A stretch of DNA of 64,000 nt from NCBI GenBank assembly GCA_041530395.1, contig CP136945.1, positions 992,001-1,056,000 of the forward strand, given 5' to 3'. The position numbers were made by a program, and so were the translations under genes. Under the pieces are notes generated by a model. That model saw nothing but the letters and a program-made list of their open reading frames with translations. It was not told the DNA's origin and did no database searches. Shown here piece by piece: positions 1-35,788 of this stretch. Origin of the DNA: Thermosynechococcaceae cyanobacterium Okahandja (GTDB lineage: Bacteria; Cyanobacteriota; Cyanobacteriia; Thermosynechococcales; Thermosynechococcaceae). Position 1 is the stretch's first letter; each line of letters begins with the position of its first letter.

Positions 1-383
1 ACCGTCTCTTTGATGAGCTGCTACCCCTGACCAAAGACACAAGGAACGGTATTACCTTTGTACCGCCCGCAGAAATGGAAGAAACTGGGGATGAAATTCG
101 CCTCAAACTAGAAATTCCTGGGATGGAGGCCAAAGATCTAAACGTTGAAGTTGCTGCAGAAGCTGTCAGTATCAGCGGTGAACGTAAGTCGGAAACGAAG
201 ACCGAAGAAAAAGGCGTAACCCGTACTGAATTCCGCTATGGTAAGTTCTCGCGAGTCATTCCGCTACCGGCTCGTATCCAAAACGATAAGGTTCACGCCG
301 AATATAAAGATGGTGTCCTCACCCTAACACTGCCCAAGGCAGAAGATGAAAAAAGCAAAGTGGTCAAAGTCAACATCGGTTAA
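1..383 (+). CDS. Small heat shock protein Hsp20 (5' end outside window)
   Basis: Small heat shock protein of the alpha-crystallin family, an ATP-independent holdase chaperone that binds unfolding proteins. The frame is open from base 3, before the first internal ATG at 75, so the gene starts upstream of the window and only about 126 C-terminal residues are visible. The alpha-crystallin domain is clear: an EIPGM segment at its start, a central SGERKSE stretch, and near the C-terminus GVLTLTLPK, the family's hallmark G-x-L motif. A short charged tail ends in KVNIG. Family identity is secure; the specific paralogue cannot be told. The sequence downstream is decayed DNA, so this is probably the last gene of its transcript. 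Confidence 0.93.
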   Translation, partial: RLFDELLPLTKDTRNGITFVPPAEMEETGDEIRLKLEIPGMEAKDLNVEVAAEAVSISGERKSETKTEEKGVTRTEFRYGKFSRVIPLPARIQNDKVHAEYKDGVLTLTLPKAEDEKSKVVKVNIG

Positions 384-523
384 TCCATTCCGCCGGAGGA
401 GACTCAATATCCTCTCTAGGTGGAGGGAACAACAGGGGCAACCAAGGCAACATTTCAGTCTCCTGATTATATGAGCCTGCCGGTTGCCCTTTCCTTATCC
501 TTAACTTCTTCGGAGAAATACCC

Positions 524-668
524 ATGAGTACTGCCTTTGAGAAACCACCCGAAAGAAAAATGTGTTCCCGCTGCTTTCAAGGAAGAAAAAAAGCTAGAGG
601 ATGCCATTAAGCGCCTCCTAGATCGCGGTGTGCCTAAGGAAAATATTTCGGTAGTGCTAAACAGGTAA
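524..668 (+). pseudogene. Frameshifted remnant of a small stress-type protein
   Basis: An ATG at 524 follows a good ribosome binding site (GGAG, 8 bases upstream) and opens MSTAFEKPP, but this frame soon stops. The neighbouring frame then reads FKEEKKLEDAIKRLLDRGVP followed by KENISVVLNR and a TAA at 666. The joined sequence resembles the N-terminal alpha/beta segment of general-stress (YflT/DUF1269-like) proteins, in which a helix of the type EDAIxxLxxxGVP precedes a strand starting ISVV. At least one indel near 540-570 separates the frames and the 3' part is missing where the IS1-like remnant begins. The family assignment is a recollection of pattern and is tentative; the broken state is seen directly. 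Confidence 0.45.
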
Positions 669-679
669 GGATGCATTGT

Positions 680-1020
680 AAACGACCACATCTCGTCACA
701 CGGAATGGTTAAACGCCCTTTTTTGGGACCCGCGCCTGCACTTGACGCGGCACGTCCTGATATTTCTGGTTGACATAGCTCTGAAGCCAAGGTTCTGAAA
801 CGTCTGCCCCTCTGGCAGTTCCGGCTAGGGGAATCTTCTTCAGCAGCAATTTATCAATCAAGGTTTTGGTTGCTGGGTCAATGATTTTATTCTGAGGGTC
901 TTGCACAAATTGTCTGCCATACTCACGGCATTTAAAGTTCTGTTTACCGTTATGGATTTTGCCGTTTTTGACGACATGACTTGACAGGCAATCAGGGCAG
1001 GTGGGTTGGCAATCAGACAT
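680..1020 (-). pseudogene. IS1-family transposase remnant (InsA plus start of InsB)
   Basis: Read on the minus strand from ATG at 1020, the product begins with a zinc-ribbon (CPDC then CREYGRQF, with the second knuckle's cysteine altered) and continues through KNGKIHNGKQNFKC, typical of the InsA part of cyanobacterial IS1-family transposases. The frame stops at 709, but the -1 frame continues as KKGRLTIPCDEMWSF, the start of the catalytic InsB part. Homology is lost after about 680, so most of the DDE domain is gone and the element is dead. The frame change falls on an in-phase A_AAA_AAG, the kind of slippery site by which IS1 elements make their fusion transposase. Confidence 0.72.
718..724 (-). 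other. In-phase -1 slippery heptamer A_AAA_AAG in the IS1 remnant
   Basis: On the minus strand the InsA-like frame reads CCA AAA AAG GGC, giving A_AAA_AAG in the correct phase for -1 slippage. The InsB-like frame continues in exactly the -1 phase. IS1-family elements are known to use programmed -1 frameshifting at A-rich slippery sites. Confidence 0.5.
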
Positions 1021-1056
1021 CGGTTTTCTGCTGTTATCCCTTTCATCCTTACATTT

Positions 1057-1215
1057 TTAGGACCACCAAATGGTAAAGTAGGCAGAAGTGATCGATAGCC
1101 TTGAGCCTGTCCGGATTTTCTCCTGTAAAAAACGACCCAGACTGCCGCGCCGATGGTTATCCCGAATTCCAGAAGCAGGTGCCTGAGTATGGCTGCCAGT
1201 GTTGGCGATCGTCAT
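1057..1215 (-). pseudogene. 5' fragment resembling a helicase with PLD-like N-terminal domain
   Basis: From an ATG at 1215 the minus strand reads about 52 residues, including RRGSLGRFLQEKI followed by RTGSRLSITSAYFTIWW. That is the style of the N-terminal phospholipase-D-like segment found in some large bacterial SNF2/DEAD helicases (pattern: a short basic lead, FLxxxIxxGxxLSIxSAYFTI). The frame ends immediately beside the IS1-family remnant, which fits disruption by that element. Only the first strand and helix are present, so identification rests on a short motif and is tentative. Upstream (1216-1425) I see no gene. Confidence 0.35.
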
Positions 1216-1425
1216 CCCACTATCCTTGCTAGAAGCCAGAATCAAGTATTCTATGATGATAACAACTGCTTCTTGGCAAAAACAGCTATTGCTGAGTCAA
1301 ATCGACACATTCAGTACGATGCTCATCGCTCCCTGAACGCCTCAAGGGTTACATTGACAATCCAGCCGTGCTTTTGGGGTGCTGGGATAGCCCAAAACCC
1401 TTAGTGTACCTTGGTTCCCCGCCAA

Positions 1426-1499
<74 letters not shown>

Positions 1500-1551
1500 A
1501 TAACTTATTTAAGATAACATTGCAGGCGGCGCCTCTCAAGACTCCGGCATC

Positions 1552-2958
1552 ATGACTTTTTCTCTCCTTAATACTCTATTGCAGCAACAGCACTCCTGCC
1601 CGTTTCATACCCCGGGGCATCAGCGGGGTCGGGGGATGGCTGCCCCTTTACGGGCGCTTTGGGGTCATGCCCTCGAACAAGATTTAAGCGAGATTCCGGG
1701 GCTAGATAACTTAGCGCAACCTACGGGTATCTTGGCCGACGTTCAAGCCGCCATTGCTACTGCTGCGGGCAGCGATCGCGCCTGGTGCCTTGTGAATGGA
1801 GCCACCGCTGGCGTCTTAGCGGCACTGCTGGCCACCCTCGAACCCAATGACGTGGTTCTTGTGGGGCGCAATGTTCACCGCTCCGTGATTTCCGGTCTGA
1901 TCTTGAGTGGCGCTCAGCCGGTCTATCTGGGGGTCACGGTGGATGCCCTTTGGGGGATTCCCGAGCCGGTGTCCCTAGCAACGGTGACTGAGGCCTTGGC
2001 CGCCTATCCAACAGCAAAAGCCCTCGTGCTTGTTAGCCCTACCTACGAGGGGCTGTGCTCGCCCCTTGCGGAAATAGCCCAACACGTCCATGCACAGGGG
2101 CTAATGCTAATTGTGGATGAAGCTCACGGCAGTCATTTTGGCTTTCATCCCTCTTTTCCTACCCCTGCCCTAGCCGCCGGTGCGGATCTGGTGATCCAGT
2201 CTTGGCATAAGACCCTGGGCACCCTAACCCAAACCGCTGTCCTGCACCTGAAGGGCAACCGCGTTGCACCAGAGCGGGTTCACCAAGCGGTAACCCTTGT
2301 CCAAACCACTAGCCCCAACTACTGGCTCCTGAGTGCCCTAGAGGGAGCCTGCTGGCAACTGGTTCACCAAGGGCAAGCCATTTACGAGCACCTCTTGACA
2401 TGGGTGAGAGAGTTTGACTCCCCCTTGCCACGCCGCCAAGCGAACGAGATCCCCCAAGATCCCCTACGGCTAACCTTGGGCACGTGGCCGCTCGGCCTCA
2501 CCGGAATGGCCGTGGATGCCCAACTGCAACCGGATATTGTGGCTGAACTTGCGGGGGGGCGATCGCTCACCTTTTGTGTTGGCCTAGGAACCACTCGGTC
2601 AATGCTGCATACCCTGAGCGAACGACTGTGGGCTATCCAGCGCCAGCATCAACCAGCGCAACCTTTACCGCCGATGGACATTGCCGCACCCGTTCCTCAC
2701 ACCTGTCCTGCCTTGTCGCCACGTGCCACCTACTTTAGCGAGCAGCAACCAGTCCCCTTGGCCGCAGCCCTTGGCCAAATTAGCGCCGAAACGCTCTGTC
2801 CCTACCCACCGGGAATTCCCATCCTCATTGCTGGCGAACGGATTACCGCCGCCACCCTAACAGAGCTAGAAACCCACCGCGCCATGGGCAGCGACATTAT
2901 CGGCGCAGCGGACCCGCAGCTACAGCAAATCAGGGTTGTTGTTAGCTGCAAGGCCTAG
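1552..2958 (+). CDS. Orn/Lys/Arg decarboxylase-family PLP enzyme
   Basis: A fold-type I pyridoxal-phosphate enzyme of the Orn/Lys/Arg decarboxylase major-domain family, 468 residues. The family entry motif FHTPGHQRG lies near residue 18. The PLP region shows VDEAHGSHFGFHP and then IQSWHKTLG, whose lysine would form the Schiff base. A C-terminal segment with PYPPGIPILIAGE matches the family's C-terminal domain. It is much shorter than the wing-domain decarboxylases of enterobacteria, as usual for the cyanobacterial and Gram-positive (SpeA/YaaO-like) form. Substrate (arginine or lysine) cannot be decided from sequence; polyamine synthesis is the usual role. Its TAG stop shares the bases CTAG with the stop of the convergent DUF3727 gene. 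Confidence 0.9.
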   Translation: MTFSLLNTLLQQQHSCPFHTPGHQRGRGMAAPLRALWGHALEQDLSEIPGLDNLAQPTGILADVQAAIATAAGSDRAWCLVNGATAGVLAALLATLEPNDVVLVGRNVHRSVISGLILSGAQPVYLGVTVDALWGIPEPVSLATVTEALAAYPTAKALVLVSPTYEGLCSPLAEIAQHVHAQGLMLIVDEAHGSHFGFHPSFPTPALAAGADLVIQSWHKTLGTLTQTAVLHLKGNRVAPERVHQAVTLVQTTSPNYWLLSALEGACWQLVHQGQAIYEHLLTWVREFDSPLPRRQANEIPQDPLRLTLGTWPLGLTGMAVDAQLQPDIVAELAGGRSLTFCVGLGTTRSMLHTLSERLWAIQRQHQPAQPLPPMDIAAPVPHTCPALSPRATYFSEQQPVPLAAALGQISAETLCPYPPGIPILIAGERITAATLTELETHRAMGSDIIGAADPQLQQIRVVVSCKA

Positions 2959-3578
2959 TTGTCCCAGTCCTCCGCATCAATAAAATGGCTCACCAAATGC
3001 TCCTCCAAAAGGGGTTGCAAATGCTGAAAATCTTGGGGAGAGAGCAATTCTGGCTCTTTGCCCGGAACTAACCGTGCCACGTACAGGGTAGGACTCAGGG
3101 GAGTATAGACGCTGTATTCCCGCACCCCCCAAAAGAAGCTGCTGCCGAGGGGCTGATATTCCTCAATGGTCACCTCGTCTTCGGCTTCCACCTCGACACT
3201 CAGCACATCCTCGTCATCCAATTCCGGTAGCTCACCGCTGACCGTGAGGGTCAAGGCAGTGCGTTGCAGTGTTAGGTTTTGTTCTTCAAGAATGGCGCGT
3301 GCTGTATCAAAGACTTGGTCAATTTCGGCCTCATCAAGGGGCACCAATGTTTCTTCATCTTCGTCTTCGGCAACGACAGCGAAAATTTCCACCGGATAGT
3401 CCACAGGCCGCAGCAGAGCATAGGTTTCCCCTTGCACCGTCAAGCGAAACTCAATGTAGCAATTGAGAAAACGCCCTTCGTCATCGTAGAGACGGAGTTG
3501 CTCCAACTCTCCCTCGAAGTCGTCCTCTTCCCAAGGTTGCTCATTACTGTTGTACGGATTTTGATAGTTGGATCCCAT
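2955..3578 (-). CDS. DUF3727 domain protein
   Basis: An acidic 207-residue protein of the DUF3727 family, found in cyanobacteria and plastid-bearing organisms. The visible features are a short N-terminal arm rich in Asn and Gln, an N-terminal strand-rich segment (LRLYDDEGRFLNCYIEF, then YALLRPVDYPVEIF), a very acidic central stretch, and a C-terminal half with FFWGVREYSVYTPLSPTLYVA. No catalytic motif or membrane segment is visible, so it is probably soluble. The function of the family is not something I can state. The gene is monocistronic or first in its unit: the sugar-kinase operon ends 165 bases upstream on the same strand. Its stop overlaps the convergent decarboxylase stop. Confidence 0.85.
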   Translation of the reverse strand: MGSNYQNPYNSNEQPWEEDDFEGELEQLRLYDDEGRFLNCYIEFRLTVQGETYALLRPVDYPVEIFAVVAEDEDEETLVPLDEAEIDQVFDTARAILEEQNLTLQRTALTLTVSGELPELDDEDVLSVEVEAEDEVTIEEYQPLGSSFFWGVREYSVYTPLSPTLYVARLVPGKEPELLSPQDFQHLQPLLEEHLVSHFIDAEDWDN

Positions 3579-26529: not shown

Positions 26530-26943
26530 ATGCTGGAAAAATGCCAAATAATTCAACTTCCGAAAATTACAGATCCAAGAGGAAATCTTACTTTTGTTGA
26601 GGGAGGTCGGCATATTTCATTTCAAATTCAGCGAGTTTTCTATCTTTATGATGTTCCAGGAGGAGCAGATAGAGGTGCCCATGCTCATAAGCAGCTCCAC
26701 CAATTTGTTGTTGCTATGTCTGGTAGTTTTGATGTTGTTTTAGATGATGGGGAACGCAAACAACGTTATCATTTGAACCGCTCATACTTTGGATTGTATA
26801 TCTGCCCAATGATGTGGAGCTACTTAGATAACTTTTCTTCTGGTGCTGTTTGTATGGTTCTTGCTTCTGCACCCTACGACGAGAATGACTACATTCGTGA
26901 TTATGATCAATTCATTGCCCTAGCTGAAACACAGAGAAAGTAA
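26530..26943 (+). CDS. dTDP-6-deoxy-3,4-keto-hexulose isomerase (FdtA/QdtA type)
   Basis: A 137-residue cupin-fold isomerase that converts dTDP-4-keto-6-deoxyglucose to the 3-keto sugar, the step before 3-amino sugars such as dTDP-Fuc3N or dTDP-Qui3N. Diagnostic stretches are [55 protein letters not shown] with the catalytic histidines, and [18 protein letters not shown]. Length is typical. Whether the product is the galacto (FdtA) or gluco (QdtA) isomer cannot be decided. The stop TAATG overlaps the aminotransferase start, so the two are translationally coupled and act in sequence. Composition is AT-rich, unlike the core. Confidence 0.88.
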
Positions 26944-28058
26944 TGTCAACTATCTCTTTCCTTGATCTCGGTGCAGCCTACTATGAACTTAAAACTGAGA
27001 TTGATGGTGCCATTGAACGGGTGCTGTCATCTGGCTGGTACATTCTCGGATCTGAAGTTGAAGCTTTTGAGGCTGAATGGGCTACCTACTGTGGTGCAAA
27101 GTATGCCATTGGCGTTGGCAATGGTCTAGATGCTCTCATATTGGCTCTGAAGGCAATGGGAGTGAGTCAGAACGATGAAGTAATTGTCCCTAGTAATACC
27201 TACATTGCAACATGGCTAGCTGTGAGTCAGTGCGGTGCCATTCCAGTTCCAGTTGAACCAGACCCAAGAACGTACAATATCAACCCCGAAGTCATAAGGA
27301 AAGCAATTACTCCCCGCACTAAAGTCATTCTTCCAGTACATCTTTATGGTCAACCTGCTGATCTTGAGCCTATTCTCAGTATTGCTCGTGATTATAATCT
27401 ATGGGTCTTAGAAGATGCTGCTCAGGCTCATGGAGCCAAGTATCAAGGTCAACGGATTGGTGCACACGGTGATGCCGTGGCTTGGAGTTTTTATCCCAGC
27501 AAGAACCTTGGTGCATTGGGTGATGCTGGAGCCGTCACAACTAACAACCCTGATCTAGCGGACAAAATTCAAATCTTGCGTAATTATGGATCTCGACTCA
27601 AGTATGTTAATGAAGTGAAAGGAGTCAATAGTCGCCTTGACCCTTTACAAGCTGCTGTTCTTCGGGTGAAGCTGAAGCACCTAAATGAATGGAACCAACG
27701 ACGGCGGAAAATTGCTCAACTTTACCTGACAGAGTTACAATCAGCAAGTTTAGTTTTACCTTTCGTTTCTGAAAAGGCAGAGCCAGTGTGGCACCTTTTT
27801 GTCATCCAAGCTTCAAATCGTGACTGGCTGCAACAAAAACTTGAGGAAGCAAACATTCATACCCTAATTCACTACCCTATTCCTCCTCATTGCCAAAATG
27901 CTTATCGTGATTTAAAGTACACCAAAGGTTCATTTCCCGTAGCTGAGAAACTAGCAAATAAAATGCTTAGTTTGCCAATTGGTCCTCATCTTAAACCTGA
28001 TGAAGCACTTCATGTTGCCTATACACTTAAAAAACTAAACGTGAGAGCAAAAGAGTGA
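26943..28058 (+). CDS. DegT/DnrJ/EryC1/StrS sugar aminotransferase (FdtB/QdtB type)
   Basis: A PLP-dependent transaminase of 371 residues that would aminate the 3-keto sugar made by the preceding isomerase, using glutamate. Key parts are [29 protein letters not shown] (the PLP-pyridine contact), and [16 protein letters not shown], whose lysine forms the Schiff base. [20 protein letters not shown] and [13 protein letters not shown] are typical of the FdtB/QdtB branch. The pathway's usual final enzyme, an N-acetyltransferase (FdtC/QdtC), is not found next to it, nor are rmlA and rmlB. Its TGA overlaps the GTG of the next glycosyltransferase. Confidence 0.9.
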
Positions 28059-29062
28059 ATCAAATGGCAAAACAACAATTTAATTTTCCTCTAGCAACTT
28101 TTATAGTGGTGGCATACAATCAAGAAAACTATATTCGTGAAGCAATAGAAGGTGCATTTAGTCAAACCTATACACCGTTAGAAATCATTCTTTCTGATGA
28201 CTGCTCTACAGACAAAACTTTTAAAATCATGCAAGAAATGGCTTTTATGTACCGAGGTTCACATTTACTAAAAGTTAGAAGTACAAAACATAATCAAGGA
28301 ACATTTAATCATGTTCTTGAATGTATTTCAGAGGCACAGGGTGACCTTATCATACTAGCAGCAGGTGATGATATCTCTCATCCACAAAGAACAGCTCTTA
28401 TTGTAGACAAATGGATTCAGACACAATCTATGGCGTTGTATTCTGATTTTGTCGTCATTAATGCCAATTCTGAAAAAATTTTAAATAAAATAAACAATAA
28501 GCCTTTTCATAACGAACTTAGACATTGGTTTGCCCAAGAAAAGAATATTGCATTTATTCATGGCGCAACATCAGCATATGATAAGCAGATGTTTAGTTAT
28601 CTACCTAAATCTGATTCAGCAATTTATTCAGAGGATGTTATTTTTTCTTTTATTATTAACTTAAAAAAACTGAAATTTTCGCACATAAAAAAAGATTTAG
28701 TCAGTTACAGGCAGCACGAAAATGCAATATCAAATAACGCAAGTAAAACTCATGGAATTTCGGATATAAAAGAATTAGAAGTAAAATTATCTAAAATTGC
28801 TACATCAGAACTTGCTATAGTTAATTATATAAATAAACTTTATTCTACAAAAGATGCAAAATATAATTTTCTTAGGGACAAACTATTAAGCACACAAAGG
28901 TACTATACAATGGTTAAATTATGGATTTATATGTCAACATTAGATAGGTTGAAATACTTATTAAAATGTAGGCAACTTAGGGAAATTAAGTTTCTATTCC
29001 CTAGATTATTTGGCTTAAATTTTTTCGCATTTTTAAAGCTACTAATATTAAGGTTGAAGTAA
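28055..29062 (+). CDS. Family 2 glycosyltransferase
   Basis: A GT-A fold glycosyltransferase of 335 residues. The N-terminal domain shows [20 protein letters not shown] and [12 protein letters not shown] (nucleotide-sugar binding), then [12 protein letters not shown] with the DxD-like metal-binding aspartates. RQHENAIS near residue 225 fits the C-terminal end of the catalytic domain. The rest is Lys/Leu-rich and probably membrane-associated. Donor and acceptor sugars are unknown. The longest start is a GTG overlapping the aminotransferase stop; an ATG nine bases later is equally likely. It is very AT-rich and forms part of the continuous plus-strand operon. Confidence 0.85.
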
Positions 29063-30135
29063 TGAATACTTCCGTGTCTATAATTCTGACATGTTACAAT
29101 CTTGAAGCATATATTGCAGAAGCAATTGAGTCGGTCTTTCAACAAACAGAAAAATGCATTCAATTAATCATTATTGACGACTGCTCCACAGATTCTTCAC
29201 CCAATATTATTGAGAGATACTATAAAATAATGGCTGTAAATAAAAGTATTGAAATCAACTATATCAAGAATGAAAAAAATTTAGGTGTTATGCTCTCTAC
29301 TCTGAAGGCTTTGAGCCTGTGCAAGAATGATATAGTCCTTTTTTTAGACGGCGATGATATTTGGCATAATACAAAGGTGGAATCTGTTGTTAAAAAGTTT
29401 GATGATGATTCAACTGTATTCGTTACACATGACGTATCTTATATAGATGCGAATTCAAAGAAAATTCGAATTCAGAGACCCAAATCTGTACAGCAGCTAA
29501 ATAATTTAACGAGCAAAAAATCAGCAAAGGAAATATCTGATATTATTAGAAAAGGTATAGTGTATCACAAAGATTATGTTTGGCTTGGTAGCGCGTTTGG
29601 CATAAATAAAAGTAAAATTTATTTAAGCGAATATATTCAGCTATGTTTAAATTTTCCTAAAATAGAGCTTTGCTATCAAGATTGGCCTTTAGCTGTTTGG
29701 GTGGCATGTATTTCATCCGAAACTCATAAGTTTGGTTACATTCCTGATTGCCTTATGTTATATCGACTACATTCATGTAATTATAGCAGCGATACTACAA
29801 CCTTGGATAAATTAACTAGGAATCTATATAAATCTTATTACACGGCAAGATTAATTAGAAAAATAGTTTTCAAGCTTTCTGATAACAAATCTCATAAAAA
29901 GTCTGCTGACATTTTAGTAAGGTATAGCAACTATAGAATTAAAACACTCAAATTACAACGAATTGAACTAATAAAATATTTATTAAAGAATATTTTATTG
30001 ATAATTTCTTTTCCCAACTCTATTAAGGAAATTACTAGACTAGTACTTTTATTTTTGTTTGGAGCTGATTTTTTAAATACAATAAAAAATATCATTAATA
30101 AATACATTGGAACTTTATTATTTTCTGGTAGATAG
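29062..30135 (+). CDS. Family 2 glycosyltransferase
   Basis: A 357-residue GT-A enzyme with SVSIILTCYNLEAYIAEAIE, LIIIDDCSTDSSPNI and the metal-binding FLDGDDIWHN. YRLHSCNYSSD near residue 235 ends the catalytic domain. The C-terminal third is basic with a hydrophobic patch (YLLKNILLIISFPNSI), suggesting membrane attachment. Specificity is unknown. Its ATG overlaps the previous stop by one base. With the preceding enzyme it is expected to extend the repeat unit on the cytoplasmic face of the inner membrane. Base composition is among the most AT-rich in the window. Confidence 0.85.
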   Translation: MNTSVSIILTCYNLEAYIAEAIESVFQQTEKCIQLIIIDDCSTDSSPNIIERYYKIMAVNKSIEINYIKNEKNLGVMLSTLKALSLCKNDIVLFLDGDDIWHNTKVESVVKKFDDDSTVFVTHDVSYIDANSKKIRIQRPKSVQQLNNLTSKKSAKEISDIIRKGIVYHKDYVWLGSAFGINKSKIYLSEYIQLCLNFPKIELCYQDWPLAVWVACISSETHKFGYIPDCLMLYRLHSCNYSSDTTTLDKLTRNLYKSYYTARLIRKIVFKLSDNKSHKKSADILVRYSNYRIKTLKLQRIELIKYLLKNILLIISFPNSIKEITRLVLLFLFGADFLNTIKNIINKYIGTLLFSGR

Positions 30136-30140
30136 TTAAT

Positions 30141-31268
30141 ATGGTTGACATTACAATTATCACTTTTGACTTACGTTGTGGAGGTCTAGAAAGAGCATTT
30201 CTTGATCTTGCTATACAGTTTATAAAGAAAAAATATAAAGTTGAATTTTTAGTTATGCAGAAATTTGGCTCCTTACTTGATGAAGCTGAAAAAATATGCA
30301 AAATATATTCTTTAGATATTAAGAAAATAAGATATATTAGAAAACCATTAGCCAGCTACTTATCATCTAGAAAGCCTAAGATTGTTTTAGTTGGAATGTG
30401 GCCATTAACAATTTTAGTGCCAATGATTGTAAAGATAAATAACTATTCAAATAGGTTAAAAACACGAGTATTAATTAGTGAACAGGTAATGTTATCAATT
30501 AAGGGCGATGATTGGAGGAAACCTTATTTTATGCATAGTTTTATAATGAGAGCTACAATGTTTTTGGGATATCGCCTATCAGATTATAGAGTTGCGACTT
30601 CATATGGTGTTTTAAGTGATATTGCCAGTCTGTCTTGTTTAAGTAAATCCAAATTTAATGTAATATACAATCCCTTGCGAAAGTTACCTATGCCAACCAA
30701 CAAAGAGCTAGAAATAGTTAATAACCTGTGGAAAAGTCCATTTGGTAATAGGATTTTGTGCGTAGCACGGCTGAAGCGTCAAAAAAATCACAAGCTACTA
30801 CTTGATGCCTTTTATATACTTTTTAATCAAAATTTACCAAACTTGTCTTTGATGATTGTAGGCGAAGGTGAATTGCAAAATGAATTGACTGATTACTGTA
30901 ATAATTTGGGTATTTCTGAGAAAGTAACCTTTGCAGGACTATGCATAAATCCAGCACCTTTTTATTGTACTGCAAATCTTTTTGCACTTTCTTCTGACTT
31001 TGAAGGCTTTGGTAACGTTTTAATTGAAGCTTTATCCATGGGTTTACCTGTTGTATCCACAGACTGTCCGAGCGGTCCAAGAGAAATTTTATCTGATGGA
31101 AAGTATGGTAAGCTAGTACCTGTGGGTAATGCTAACGCATTTGCAACTGCTATCATGGAAACGTTTGCTAATCCTCCTGACGCAGATTTCCTAAAGAAAC
31201 GAGCGAAAGATTTTGACTCCGAAAAAATTGCAGATCAATACTTGTCTATGATGTATCAAAATGAGTAG
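30141..31268 (+). CDS. Family 4 glycosyltransferase
   Basis: A retaining GT-B glycosyltransferase of 375 residues. The acceptor domain begins DITIITFDLRCGGLERAFLD, containing the GGxER turn. The donor domain has LCVARLKRQKNHKLLLDAF, MIVGEGELQNEL and ALSSDFEGFGNVLIEALSMG, followed by LPVVSTDCPSGPREIL, the E-x7-E motif and UDP-sugar-binding region of GT4. The layout resembles N-acetylgalactosaminyltransferases of O-antigen clusters, but the substrate is unproven. It is five bases after the previous gene and overlaps the next start by eight bases. Confidence 0.88.
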   Translation: MVDITIITFDLRCGGLERAFLDLAIQFIKKKYKVEFLVMQKFGSLLDEAEKICKIYSLDIKKIRYIRKPLASYLSSRKPKIVLVGMWPLTILVPMIVKINNYSNRLKTRVLISEQVMLSIKGDDWRKPYFMHSFIMRATMFLGYRLSDYRVATSYGVLSDIASLSCLSKSKFNVIYNPLRKLPMPTNKELEIVNNLWKSPFGNRILCVARLKRQKNHKLLLDAFYILFNQNLPNLSLMIVGEGELQNELTDYCNNLGISEKVTFAGLCINPAPFYCTANLFALSSDFEGFGNVLIEALSMGLPVVSTDCPSGPREILSDGKYGKLVPVGNANAFATAIMETFANPPDADFLKKRAKDFDSEKIADQYLSMMYQNE

Positions 31269-32463
31269 CAAAGTTCTCTATATTACTTATGATGGACTCT
31301 TGGAGCCGTTAGGGCAGTCTCAAGTTTTACGGTATCTTGAGCAACTCAGTAGCTCGTATAAGGTTTATATTCTTAGTTTTGAAAAAAGTTATGATTGGAA
31401 AAATGATAAAGAGCGAAATTATTTACAAGAACACATAAACTCAAAGCAAATTTATTGGATACCATTGAAATATCATAAATCCCCTACTGCTTTAGCTACT
31501 AGTTTTGATATTTTTCAAGGCTTTCTTACTGCTTTTCTTTTGGTTATTTTCAAGCGTATTAAGATCATTCATGCTAGAAGCTATGTACCTTCAACTATTG
31601 CACTAGTTCTGAAAAAAATATTAGGTATAAAATTTATTTTTGATATGCGTGGCTTTTGGGCTGATGAGCGTGTTGATGGTAGCCTTTGGTCAAAAGATAG
31701 CTATTTATATTTAGTGGCAAAATGGTTTGAAAAACAATTTCTTATCAATGCTGATTCAATTATTTCTCTAACGAAAGTGGCAATCCATGAAATTAGAAGC
31801 TATTCTTTTGCCGACAAGATAAAATCAGAATTCTATTGCATTCCAACATGTGTAGATTTGACTACTTTCCATGTAAGCAAAAATAATGCTCCCTGTGCAG
31901 AGATGATTACACTTGGTTATATTGGTTCTGTGAGCAGTTGGTATCTCTTTGAAGAAGTATTAGTCTTTTTTGATGCTTTTAAAAAACAATTATCTCAAAC
32001 TAATTTTATTATCCTGACTCGTAGTGATCATGATTTAGTTAAGAATTATATAAAAAAATTAGATTTGGAGTATCTCCCAATTAAGATTTTAGAAGTTCCT
32101 CACTCTCAAGTACCTAAAATAATTAGGCAAATGAACATCGGCATTTTTTTTAGAAAACCAGCCTACTCGAATCTTGCCTGTTCGCCGACACGCCTTGGTG
32201 AGTTTCTTGCTTGTGGAATTCCCTGTATAGTTAATGATGGAGTTGGTGATATGACAGAAATCATAAGAACTGAAAAAGTAGGGGTAGTCCTTAGGTGCTT
32301 TGATGATCTATCAATACTTAAAGCTATAGATGGTATACTTGACTTATTAAATGATAAAGAATTGAGTAAACGGTGTCGATATACAGCAGAAAAATATTTT
32401 TCACTTAAAGAAGGAGTTGAAAAATATAAAAAAATCTACTCTCAACTTGAAAATAAAGCATGA
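31261..32463 (+). CDS. Family 4 glycosyltransferase
   Basis: A GT-B glycosyltransferase of 400 residues. It starts KVLYITYDGLLEPLGQSQVL, a lead shared by a group of capsule and O-antigen GT4 enzymes. Other marks are FIFDMRGFWADERVDG in the acceptor domain and, in the donor domain, PTRLGEFLACGIPCIVNDGV with the EFxACG turn. The usual E-x7-E is replaced by a weaker version around GIFFRKPAYSNLACSPTRLGE (given approximately), so donor contacts may differ. The ATG overlaps the previous gene and its stop overlaps the next start. Sugar specificity is unknown. Confidence 0.85.
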   Translation: MSSKVLYITYDGLLEPLGQSQVLRYLEQLSSSYKVYILSFEKSYDWKNDKERNYLQEHINSKQIYWIPLKYHKSPTALATSFDIFQGFLTAFLLVIFKRIKIIHARSYVPSTIALVLKKILGIKFIFDMRGFWADERVDGSLWSKDSYLYLVAKWFEKQFLINADSIISLTKVAIHEIRSYSFADKIKSEFYCIPTCVDLTTFHVSKNNAPCAEMITLGYIGSVSSWYLFEEVLVFFDAFKKQLSQTNFIILTRSDHDLVKNYIKKLDLEYLPIKILEVPHSQVPKIIRQMNIGIFFRKPAYSNLACSPTRLGEFLACGIPCIVNDGVGDMTEIIRTEKVGVVLRCFDDLSILKAIDGILDLLNDKELSKRCRYTAEKYFSLKEGVEKYKKIYSQLENKA

Positions 32464-33542
32464 AAATCTTATTTCTCACAAAGTACGATCGTCGCGGAGC
32501 TAGCAGCCGTTACCGATATTTTCAGTATTATCAAGGGCTTGAAAAAGCTGGTTTTACATGTTATACAGCGGCACTATTTAATCAAAATTATGTTACTCAT
32601 CTATATCAAAATAGTTTTGTAAAATACCTAGATGCCTTACAAGCATTTTTTAGGCGCCTATTAATATTAAGGAAATTAAATCAATTTGACATTCTTGTAA
32701 TTGAGAAAGAGATATTTCCTTATCTTCCCATGGTTTTTGAAGGATTCATTAAGAATCTTGATTTTCCTATAATTATTGACTATGATGATGCTCTGTTTCA
32801 TCAATATGATCATCATAGATATAAAATTATCAGAAAGTTACTTGGCTCTAAAATTGCCTCTGTTATGAGGTGCGCAGATTTGGTAACAGTTGGTAATTCT
32901 TATCTGGCTGAATATGCGTTGAAAGCAGGTGCACAATGGGTTGAAATTCTCCCAACTATCATTGATTTGGACAAATATAGGAGCATCAAACAACATACCA
33001 ACACTAACGTAGTGAAAATTGCTTGGATCGGAACTCCAAAAACAGAACATTACCTTCAGGAAGTTGCTCCAGCTTTAGCACACGTAGCAACGAAATATCC
33101 GATTGAGTTGTATGTAATTGGTGGTCGTTCAACCAGAATTCGTGATGTTACTGTTAATATACGCCCTTGGACAGAAGAAACAGAAGTCAGTGAACTTCTA
33201 AAATGTGATATTGGTATTATGCCTTTACCTGATGAACCATGGGAACGTGGTAAATGTGGCCTAAAACTCATTCAGTATATGGCTTGTGGATTGCCTGTTA
33301 TTGCGTCACCAGTAGGTGTCAATAGTGAAATTATTGATCATGGTATTAATGGATTTCTTGCATCAAATGTAACAGATTGGGTTACTGCTTTTGAAGCTTT
33401 ATCTAAAGATGTGGAGTTGCGCTCAAAAATGGGTCAAGCAGGTCGTTGGCAAGTAGAAGAGCACTATTGTCTTCAAGTTACTACTCCCCAATTTATTCAT
33501 TTGCTAGAATTATTAATAGCTAACCAAAATAAGTTATGTTGA
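32460..33542 (+). CDS. Family 4 glycosyltransferase
   Basis: A 360-residue GT-B enzyme. The N-terminus KILFLTKYDRRGASSRYRYF has the basic turn usual for this group. IIIDYDDALFHQYDHH marks the acceptor domain, and KIAWIGTPKTEHYLQEV with IGIMPLPDEPWERGKCGLKL and IQYMACGLPVIASPVGVNSE the donor domain; the ERGKCGLK segment takes the place of the E-x7-E motif. It ends the run of tightly overlapping genes: 140 bases of AT-rich DNA with no gene separate it from the methyltransferase. Function in assembling the polysaccharide repeat unit is inferred from context. Confidence 0.87.
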   Translation: MKILFLTKYDRRGASSRYRYFQYYQGLEKAGFTCYTAALFNQNYVTHLYQNSFVKYLDALQAFFRRLLILRKLNQFDILVIEKEIFPYLPMVFEGFIKNLDFPIIIDYDDALFHQYDHHRYKIIRKLLGSKIASVMRCADLVTVGNSYLAEYALKAGAQWVEILPTIIDLDKYRSIKQHTNTNVVKIAWIGTPKTEHYLQEVAPALAHVATKYPIELYVIGGRSTRIRDVTVNIRPWTEETEVSELLKCDIGIMPLPDEPWERGKCGLKLIQYMACGLPVIASPVGVNSEIIDHGINGFLASNVTDWVTAFEALSKDVELRSKMGQAGRWQVEEHYCLQVTTPQFIHLLELLIANQNKLC

Positions 33543-33682
33543 TGTGGTGTCTATTGTATTTGAGGCTGTCTATATGAAAACTACAGGAGCTTTAGACAAA
33601 ATTATGTTTGATTTAATGGTAAATGAATTTGATATATTTATTCAGTATTAATAATCTTTTGAATTTTTGAGAGGTTACTGCT

Positions 33683-34528
33683 ATTAGTACTGGTGATTTA
33701 GAAGATAATGTTGATCTACAAACAGCACGGGGTTTCGGCGATGAGTGGTCGAGATTCCCCCAAGATAAGCTTGATCCTGAAATACGTGAGAAGGTTTTTT
33801 TAGATTATTTTTCGTTGTTTGATTGGTCTAGATTACCTCCTAATTCTATTGGTGCAGATATTGGTTGTGGCAGTGGCCGCTGGGCGCAAATTGTTGCACC
33901 AAGAGTTGGACATCTTCTGTTGATTGATGTTAGTGCTGAAGCACTTGAAGTTGCGAAAGCAAATCTACACGGCATGCCAAACGTTAGCTTTTATAAGGCA
34001 TCAGTTGGGTCACTTCCTATATGCGATAATTCTTTGGACTTTGCTTACTGTCTAGGGGTTATTCATCATGTACCGGACACTGCTGCGGCAATCAAATCCA
34101 TTGCAGTAAAGTTGAAGAAGGGAGCACCATTTTTAGTTTACCTATATTATCGATTTGATAATCGAGGCTGGGTTTACCACATTCTTTGGAGATTGAGTGA
34201 TCTGGTTCGTCGCCTTGTATCTCGATTGCCTTATGGCTGGCGTTACATTGTTAGTCAATTAATTGCAATATTTGTCTATTGGCCACTATCGAGAATGGCA
34301 GGATTGATGGAACGCTTAGGAAGGTGCCCTAATGACTGGCCACTTGCTTATTATCGCGACAAGCCTTTTTATATGCTAAGAACTGATGCTTTGGATAGGT
34401 TTGGTACGCGGTTGGAAAAGCGTTTTACGCAAGAGGAAATACGTTCTATGATGGCAAGTGCAGGCTTTGTAGATATTAAATTCTCTGATCATGCACCATA
34501 TTGGTGTGCGGTTGGCATAAAGGACTGA
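33683..34528 (+). CDS. Class I SAM-dependent methyltransferase, possible ATT start
   Basis: A methyltransferase of about 282 residues. The SAM-binding motif I is IGADIGCGSGRWAQIVAP, followed by LLIDVSAEALEVAK and FAYCLGVIHHVPDTAAA. The conserved lead TARGFGDEWSRF, then DPEIREKVFLDYFSLF, lies upstream of the first usable TTG (33815), so coding must begin earlier. Between the in-frame stop at 33668 and 33815 there is no ATG, GTG or earlier TTG. An ATT at 33683 sits 8 bases after GAGAGG, a well-placed ribosome site. Either ATT initiates, or the original ATG has mutated and expression is impaired. The family often modifies lipids or sugars in surface-polysaccharide loci. IS sequence starts 24 bases after the stop. 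Confidence 0.78.
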   Translation: MSTGDLEDNVDLQTARGFGDEWSRFPQDKLDPEIREKVFLDYFSLFDWSRLPPNSIGADIGCGSGRWAQIVAPRVGHLLLIDVSAEALEVAKANLHGMPNVSFYKASVGSLPICDNSLDFAYCLGVIHHVPDTAAAIKSIAVKLKKGAPFLVYLYYRFDNRGWVYHILWRLSDLVRRLVSRLPYGWRYIVSQLIAIFVYWPLSRMAGLMERLGRCPNDWPLAYYRDKPFYMLRTDALDRFGTRLEKRFTQEEIRSMMASAGFVDIKFSDHAPYWCAVGIKD

Positions 34529-34551: not shown

Positions 34552-34572
34552 TCTTCTGGCTACATGGTGATA
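34552..34572. repeat. Left terminal inverted repeat of the IS relic
   Basis: Reads TCTTCTGGCTACATGGTGAT plus a final A. It is the inverted partner of 35762-35782 with two transition differences. Imperfect pairing indicates either natural IRL/IRR difference or age. Confidence 0.7.
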
Positions 34573-34579
34573 AAGATAG

Positions 34580-34738
34580 CTAATGACAGAAACAGGCGAG
34601 GAGTGGGGCACGGAAGTTATCAAAGTTAGCAAAACCGTAGGCTTGTCGTTTGATGAGTTTCAGTTTATTGTTAATCCCCTCCATGACAGCTCTTCTGGGT
34701 TTAGCGATTATCTTGAAAGTCAAGTAGATTGTGGTACG
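34580..34738 (-). pseudogene. ISL3-family transposase C-terminal fragment
   Basis: The minus strand encodes RAVMEGINNKLKLIKRQAYG, then FANFDNFR and a short end ACFCH. The EGxNNKxKxIKRxxYGFxNFxNFR pattern is the conserved C-terminus of ISL3-family transposases. The upstream part (FKIIAKPR) may still belong to it, but the catalytic DDE body is missing, replaced by IS110-type sequence from 34756. The fragment lies 8 bases inside the left inverted repeat, the expected place for the 3' end of an ISL3 transposase gene. Confidence 0.65.
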
Positions 34739-34755
34739 TGTGGTGGCTGCGGTTG

Positions 34756-35595
<840 letters not shown>

Positions 35596-35761
35596 TCAAG
35601 AGGAGAGCCTAGCTAAATCTCGGTGTTTGACACCTAGGGTAAACGGTCTTCCTCTCTGTCCTTAAGATACAAGGGTGAAAATAGCAGCATACTTAGAGAT
35701 TTTGCTATATCAAGTGTTTGAAAGGCTTACCTTAACTGGGTTACAAGCCATAAGTTGAACC

Positions 35762-35782
35762 TATCGCCATATAGCCAGAAGA
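35762..35782. repeat. Right terminal inverted repeat of the IS relic
   Basis: On the minus strand reads TCTTCTGGCTATATGGCGAT plus a final A, matching 34552-34572 at 19 of 21 positions. It ends six bases before the stop codon of the wzc-like gene. Confidence 0.7.
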
Positions 35783-35788
35783 ACCGTT

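What the first reader, a model, noticed from the sequence alone, without database searches (positions are those of the whole stretch)
33668..33830. Methyltransferase with no standard start codon: ATT initiation or start-codon loss
Conserved-looking coding sequence extends 44 codons upstream of the first TTG. The only well-placed initiator is ATT at 33683, 8 bases after GAGAGG. ATT starts are very rare in bacteria (infC is the classic case) and limit expression. Alternatively this is a fresh ATG-to-ATT lesion.
Basis: partly seen in the sequence, partly recalled or inferred. Interest (0 to 1): 0.55.

Follow-up and report, generated by a model that had tools for sequence, protein, structure and literature searches.

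The report
Methyltransferase gene starting at ATT
A sugar-cluster methyltransferase gene in a cyanobacterium looks intact except that the place where its relatives start with ATG carries the very rare start codon ATT, so it is either made in small amounts or has just lost its start; an unusual but not unheard-of case.

Summary
The methyltransferase frame is open from 33671 to its stop at 34528, directly after a TGA (33668-33670), with no ATG, GTG, TTG or CTG before TTG 33815. Homologues do not begin at 33815: 8 of 66 invariant columns lie upstream of it and the model places two helices there. Homologues' ATGs lie 2 to 13 residues before a conserved N-x-D; ATT 33683 lies 8 before it, the same ungapped distance as an ATG in 2 of 7. 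ATT is the only one-base neighbour of ATG between the stop and N-x-D and has the Shine-Dalgarno core GAGGT 7 bases upstream, stronger than at the seven preceding island genes. Of 67 positions shared by six relatives it lost 1. I conclude that the initiation site is at 33683 and now reads ATT. Low-level AUU initiation is my leading reading (0.5), a fresh start loss the next (0.3); no second strain is held to separate them. Where 4 of 7 relatives have an asparagine-synthase gene, transposase remnants lie, and a sister species has a broken copy: signs of dispensability. AUU starts are known; interest is modest.

The parts
33671..33675 (+). Shine-Dalgarno core GAGGT, 7-base spacer to ATT 33683
   Evidence: Sequence; duplex with the 16S tail -7.0 kcal/mol; background rate 3-4%
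33683..33685 (+). ATT, inferred initiation codon or mutated former start
   Evidence: Only one-base neighbour of ATG between TGA 33668-33670 and the conserved N-x-D; same ungapped distance to N-x-D as an ATG in L017 and L010
33683..34528 (+). SAM-dependent methyltransferase gene, 281 codons plus stop
   Evidence: Pfam Methyltransf_11 E 9e-18; 44-60% identity to six full-length homologues
33707..33814 (+). conserved N-terminal part that a TTG 33815 start would remove (N-x-D, FG..W, F..YF; two predicted helices)
   Evidence: 8 of 66 invariant columns; helices 12-23 and 32-43
33668..33670 (+). in-frame TGA that closes the frame upstream
33815..33817 (+). TTG, first standard start codon in frame; unlikely start
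   Evidence: Ribosome-binding energy only -0.5 kcal/mol; inside the conserved region
26530..33542 (+). A+T-rich sugar/glycosyltransferase cluster upstream (FdtA, DegT-type aminotransferase, five glycosyltransferases)
   Evidence: Pfam; GC 0.30-0.41 in its 2-kb blocks
34580..35532 (-). transposase remnants (ISL3-type fragment, IS110-type frame lacking its N-terminal part) where 4 of 7 relatives carry an asparagine-synthase gene

Best explanation
This is a complete class-I SAM-dependent methyltransferase gene, the last gene of a probably acquired sugar/glycosyltransferase cluster. Its ancestral initiation site is at 33683 and the codon there is now ATT. The ribosome is placed by GAGGT 7 bases upstream and initiator tRNA starts at AUU at a low rate, giving a 281-residue protein that begins with Met. 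Shown: the open frame, the absence of a standard start, the conserved upstream part, the agreement of the site with homologues' starts, the lack of visible decay. Inferred: that the ancestral codon was a standard start (probably ATG), that AUU is used, and that the rate is low.
For: No ATG/GTG/TTG/CTG in frame between TGA 33668 and TTG 33815 and one single near-cognate before N-x-D, ATT. Homologues' ATGs stand 2-13 residues before N-x-D, two of seven homologues having one at exactly 8, as ATT. 8 of 66 invariant columns and two predicted helices lie upstream of TTG 33815. Ribosome-binding energy -7.0, stronger than at the 7 upstream island genes (-0.9 to -4.7) and than at 30 of 36 window starts picked by hand. 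The window copy keeps 66 of 67 positions that six relatives share; the ATG-started sister copy G003 keeps 66 of 77. Precedents: ATA/ATT starts reported in Nostoc 7120 proteogenomics (PMC8557916, passages); AUU/AUA starts with extended SD at about 10% of AUG in S. aureus in poor medium (PMC13009471, section 10).
Against: No expression data. infC, the classic AUU gene, gives no precedent in this genus: in 11 of 11 genomes the likely start is an invariant GTG with its own ribosome-binding site (-3.9); in this genome and G003 an ATT does lie six codons upstream in frame, where 8 genomes have ACG and one ATG, but with no ribosome-binding site (+1.1 and -1.2) and in a stretch with 5-base indels. AUG-to-AUU switches are very rare (1 of 61,358 ancestral AUG starts; PMC5622118 passages). 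A comment paper disputes some non-standard starts proposed for Synechocystis by proteogenomics (PMC13339759 passages). The SD strength is reached by 3-4% of background sites and the SD is partly paired in a 70-base fold. The seven homologues found have ATG. Transposase remnants instead of the asparagine-synthase neighbour, and a broken copy in a sister species, fit a dying gene as well.
Confidence: 0.5

Rival explanations
1. Fresh start-codon loss: the ancestral start at 33683 mutated to ATT and almost no protein is made; a pseudogene too young to show other damage.
For: Transposase remnants lie where 4 of 7 relatives have an asparagine-synthase gene; G006 of the same genus has a copy broken by stops after 133 codons and 8 of 10 other genomes of the genus have none at 1e-20; AUG-to-AUU switches are hardly ever kept.
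Against: The window copy lost the fewest shared positions of the seven full-length copies, though two others are close with 2 of 68; the ribosome-binding site is kept; so recent an event must have been caught at the right moment.
Confidence: 0.3
2. Sequencing or assembly error at 33683, or a polymorphism of this one isolate.
For: Only one assembly of this species is held; one base would explain everything.
Against: Single-contig assembly rated 100% complete; the rest of the frame is open and full length.
Confidence: 0.1
3. Translation enters from upstream: TGA read-through from ATG 33623, or a frameshift out of a short upstream frame such as that at 33574.
For: In-frame ATG 33623 with 15 codons before the TGA, and a frame at 33574 with a moderate ribosome-binding site (-5.7).
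Against: The alignment shows no shared extension; the only slippery heptamer in 33600-33760 is at 33730, behind stops of both other frames; the spacer 33543-33670 has no DNA match at E 0.01 in the 10 other genomes of the genus.
Confidence: 0.05
4. Translation starts at TTG 33815 and gives a 237-residue protein.
For: First standard start codon.
Against: Removes 8 of 66 invariant columns and two predicted helices; ribosome-binding energy only -0.5.
Confidence: 0.05

Closest known systems
AUU-initiated genes of bacteria (infC and pcnB of E. coli, recalled and seen as reference titles; cvfC1 of S. aureus, PMC13009471 section 10)
   Same: ATT at the place of the start codon with a Shine-Dalgarno sequence at normal distance
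   Different: Those have experimental evidence and, for cvfC1, conservation among species; here the homologues found have ATG and there is no expression evidence
ATT/ATA starts reported in Nostoc sp. PCC 7120 (PMC8557916, passages)
   Same: Cyanobacterial genes re-annotated with ATT/ATA starts
   Different: Supported by peptides there; its supplementary tables were not read
sigR of Streptomyces with a GTC start repressed by IF3 (PMC5472188, only the title and the start of the abstract in the listing)
   Same: A non-standard start in a gene that is not a translation factor
   Different: Another codon, with demonstrated regulation
Methyltransf_11 class-I methyltransferases of polysaccharide clusters, here a family often beside glycosyltransferase and asparagine-synthase-like genes
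   Same: SAM-binding motif, full length, glycosyltransferase neighbour
   Different: No asparagine-synthase neighbour; transposase remnants instead

Membership tests
AUU-initiated gene | No standard start codon compatible with the conserved N-terminus | tested here: met
AUU-initiated gene | Ribosome-binding site at proper distance from ATT | tested here: met
   GAGGT, 7 bases, -7.0 kcal/mol; background 3-4%
AUU-initiated gene | Protein actually made from AUU (the feature that decides) | not testable with these tools
   needs proteomics, ribosome profiling or a reporter
AUU-initiated gene | ATT conserved in relatives (supporting, not defining) | tested here: not met
   Seven homologues have ATG; no strain of the same species is held
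Class-I SAM-dependent methyltransferase (Methyltransf_11) | Profile match over the curated cut-off | tested here: met
   65.2 bits against 21.2
Class-I SAM-dependent methyltransferase (Methyltransf_11) | Glycine-rich SAM motif and fold | tested here: met
   D59 and G61-G65 region invariant; model mean pLDDT 85.2; the listed PDB matches include many methyltransferases, best E 1.0e-11, but TM to the query only 0.44-0.55 in the 50 listed
Pseudogene | Frame disabled or shared positions lost | tested here: inconclusive
   Open to the end, 66 of 67 shared positions kept; only the start codon is abnormal

The most novel reading that the evidence does not exclude
The ATT is not damage but a kept low-output switch: AUU initiation, sensitive to the IF3 level, throttles methylation of the surface sugar made by this island, a regulatory use of AUU in an accessory metabolic gene of a cyanobacterium.
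Probability: 0.1. Interest if true: 0.5.

Novelty: new member of a known kind. Interest (0 to 1): 0.27.

Why it matters
A gene finder limited to standard starts would cut this protein 44 residues short or call it broken. If AUU is used, it adds an accessory metabolic gene to the short list of bacterial AUU starts and shows how a strong ribosome-binding site can carry a gene through loss of its start codon; if not, it is a first step of gene death caught in the act.

Tried and rejected
Start at TTG 33815: rejected on conserved residues, predicted helices and weak ribosome-binding site. Read-through or frameshift from upstream: no shared extension in the alignment and no usable slippery heptamer. 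Spacer 33543-33670 as a scar of a mobile element: no DNA match at E 0.01 elsewhere in the 11 genomes of the genus, own included; two promoter-like sites on the other strand, as many as in shuffles, and no terminator-like site; the repeat pairs there are weak. infC as an in-genus AUU precedent: not borne out. dN/dS against G003: dS saturated, no ratio. Viral contigs: no relative. Class sample: 388 genomes at 1e-40 gave the same five hits, own included. Paper searches for start-codon loss and for Thermosynechococcus start codons gave nothing used. Rows dropped: L012-L015 (weak matches, 24-30%) entered no alignment; G006 (broken) was in the alignment but not in A1, A2 or the counts.

Full report
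What is there. In the methyltransferase frame the sequence reads TGA (33668-33670) GAG GTT ACT GCT ATT AGT ACT GGT GAT TTA GAA GAT AAT GTT GAT and stays open to the stop ending at 34528. The first ATG, GTG or TTG is TTG 33815. ATT 33683 is the only codon one base from ATG between the stop and the conserved N-x-D (AAT 33707); further near-cognates (AAG 33767, ATA 33782, AAG 33791) lie behind it. An ATG lies in frame at 33623, but the TGA separates it from the gene.

The protein. The frame matches Methyltransf_11 (E 9e-18, 65.2 bits, cut-off 21.2). NCBIfam gives 19 families, none at its cut-off, so the substrate is open. Upstream are FdtA, a DegT-type aminotransferase and five glycosyltransferase genes, in 2-kb blocks of GC 0.30-0.41; the blocks from 34 to 44 kb have 0.43-0.48 and the rest of the window 0.51-0.60. 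I infer an acquired surface-sugar cluster. The genome is one contig of 2.8 Mb, 100% complete. From size and gene content I take it for a Thermosynechococcus-like cyanobacterium; that is recall, not a tool result.

Homologues. The scan of genome contigs gave seven loci: three near full length at 51-55% identity (L009, L010, L011) and four weak at 24-30%. Of 58 genomes (own and relatives) five match at 1e-20: own, G003 (61%), G035 (49%), G029 (45%) and a broken G006 (45%, frame of 133 codons, two stops). A class sample of 388 genomes at 1e-40 gave the same five. Viral contigs gave none.

Where homologues begin. Residues from ATG to the conserved Asn of N-x-D, counted (and for L010 and L011): G003 13 (9 for its second ATG), G035 12 (8), Omnitrophica L010 11 (8), G029 6, Bacteriovoracaceae L009 5, Polynucleobacter L011 4, G006 2. 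ATT 33683 is at 8: within the range, and at the exact distance of an ATG in two of seven. Which of two ATGs is used in three of them is not proved. In A2 (window protein and six full-length homologues, identity 44-60%) 66 columns are invariant, 8 of them upstream of TTG 33815: N9, D11, F18, G19, W22, F39, Y42, F43. The AlphaFold model (mean pLDDT 85.2, pTM 0.84) has helices 12-23 and 32-43 there, block means 72-84; residues 1-6 are below 50. A TTG start would remove both helices. The profile matches 55 distinct PDB sequences at 1e-3, the named ones being mostly methyltransferases; the fold search gives best E 1.0e-11 but TM to the query of only 0.44-0.55 in the 50 rows listed, so part of the model may be unlike the solved ones.

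Ribosome-binding site. GAGGT ends 7 bases before ATT. The duplex with the 16S tail is -7.0 kcal/mol; the seven upstream island genes have -0.9 to -4.7; of 36 start sites that I picked by hand from the window's frames, 6 are stronger; TTG 33815 has -0.5. Background in the island: 276 of 7,018 positions and 9 of 266 ATT triplets reach -7.0, and a five-base core at 5-9 bases stands before 1.8% of positions. Local folding is average (122 of 202 forty-base windows are more stable); in a 70-base fold three of the five SD bases are paired and two of the three ATT bases are in a loop.

Decay. Of positions shared by the six other full-length rows each copy lost: window 1 of 67 (L to I), G035 2 of 68, Bacteriovoracaceae 2 of 68, G029 3 of 69, Polynucleobacter 6 of 72, Omnitrophica 8 of 74, G003 11 of 77. 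The measure depends on kinship among rows; it says only that no decay is visible. Against G003, the 36 codons from N-x-D to TTG 33815 differ at 14, 7 and 21 first, second and third positions, as coding sequence does; dS is saturated.

Surroundings that fit loss of use. The next gene downstream is asparagine-synthase-like in L010, L011, L016 (G003) and L017 (G035), 4 of 7 homologue loci. In G006 that gene lies upstream and is itself in pieces with a stop; L009 has a glycosyltransferase downstream and L018 a convergent polysaccharide-synthesis gene of the dehydratase/epimerase type. In the window there is an ISL3-type fragment and an IS110-type frame without its N-terminal part instead. Asparagine-synthase genes do occur elsewhere in this genome, at about 2.55 and 2.57 Mb. 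Eight of ten other genomes of the genus have no methyltransferase match at 1e-20.

infC. As a possible in-genus precedent I read infC in 11 of 11 genomes. An invariant GTG with CAGGTA(C/G)CA in front (-3.9 in all 11) is the likely start. Six codons upstream this genome and G003 have ATT, eight have ACG and G006 has ATG, without a clear ribosome-binding site (-1.5 to +2.9), next to 5-base indels. So infC gives no support for AUU use here.

Precedent in print. In passages, Nostoc 7120 proteogenomics reports eight revised genes with ATA or ATT starts (PMC8557916); a comment paper disputes some non-standard starts proposed for Synechocystis (PMC13339759). In S. aureus, AUU or AUA starts with extended SD give about 10% of AUG in poor medium (PMC13009471, section 10). 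Of 61,358 ancestral AUG starts one became AUU, and GUG or UUG genes have a strong SD more often than AUG genes (PMC5622118 passages). A Streptomyces sigR GTC start repressed by IF3 was seen only as a title and abstract start (PMC5472188).

Verdict. The gene's initiation site is at 33683 and reads ATT. Low-rate AUU initiation is the leading explanation, start-codon loss the main rival; one more strain, or one peptide, would decide.

Noticed in passing
L010, L011, L016, L017 around the methyltransferase: The methyltransferase is followed by an asparagine-synthase-like gene in these four loci and preceded by a glycosyltransferase gene in three of them (L010, L011, L017): a possible functional pair in surface-sugar clusters.
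   Followed up: partly
L019 (G006) 1-3522: Same-genus copy of the methyltransferase and its asparagine-synthase neighbour both carry stops, next to a glycosyltransferase that looks by eye like window 32460-33542.
   Followed up: partly
34756-35532 (-): IS110-type transposase frame that matches its profiles only from about position 55 on; no second near-identical copy was found in the genome.
   Followed up: partly
34580-34813 (-): ISL3-type transposase C-terminal fragment; an 89% identical fragment (34552-34654) lies at G000:2557119-2557222, in a second sugar cluster with two asparagine-synthase genes.
   Followed up: partly
35672-35786: 70-78% matches to parts of this stretch occur at four other places of the genome, perhaps a small repeated element.
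   Followed up: no
33574-33651: Short frame with a moderate ribosome-binding site (-5.7) between the glycosyltransferase and the methyltransferase.
   Followed up: no
L016 (G003): The ATG-started sister copy has lost 11 of 77 positions shared by the six others, including the second His of the LHH stretch; it may be diverging or decaying.
   Followed up: no
L022-L032 (infC, 11 genomes): Six codons before the invariant GTG of infC stands ATT in 2, ACG in 8 and ATG in 1 genome, without a clear ribosome-binding site.
   Followed up: partly
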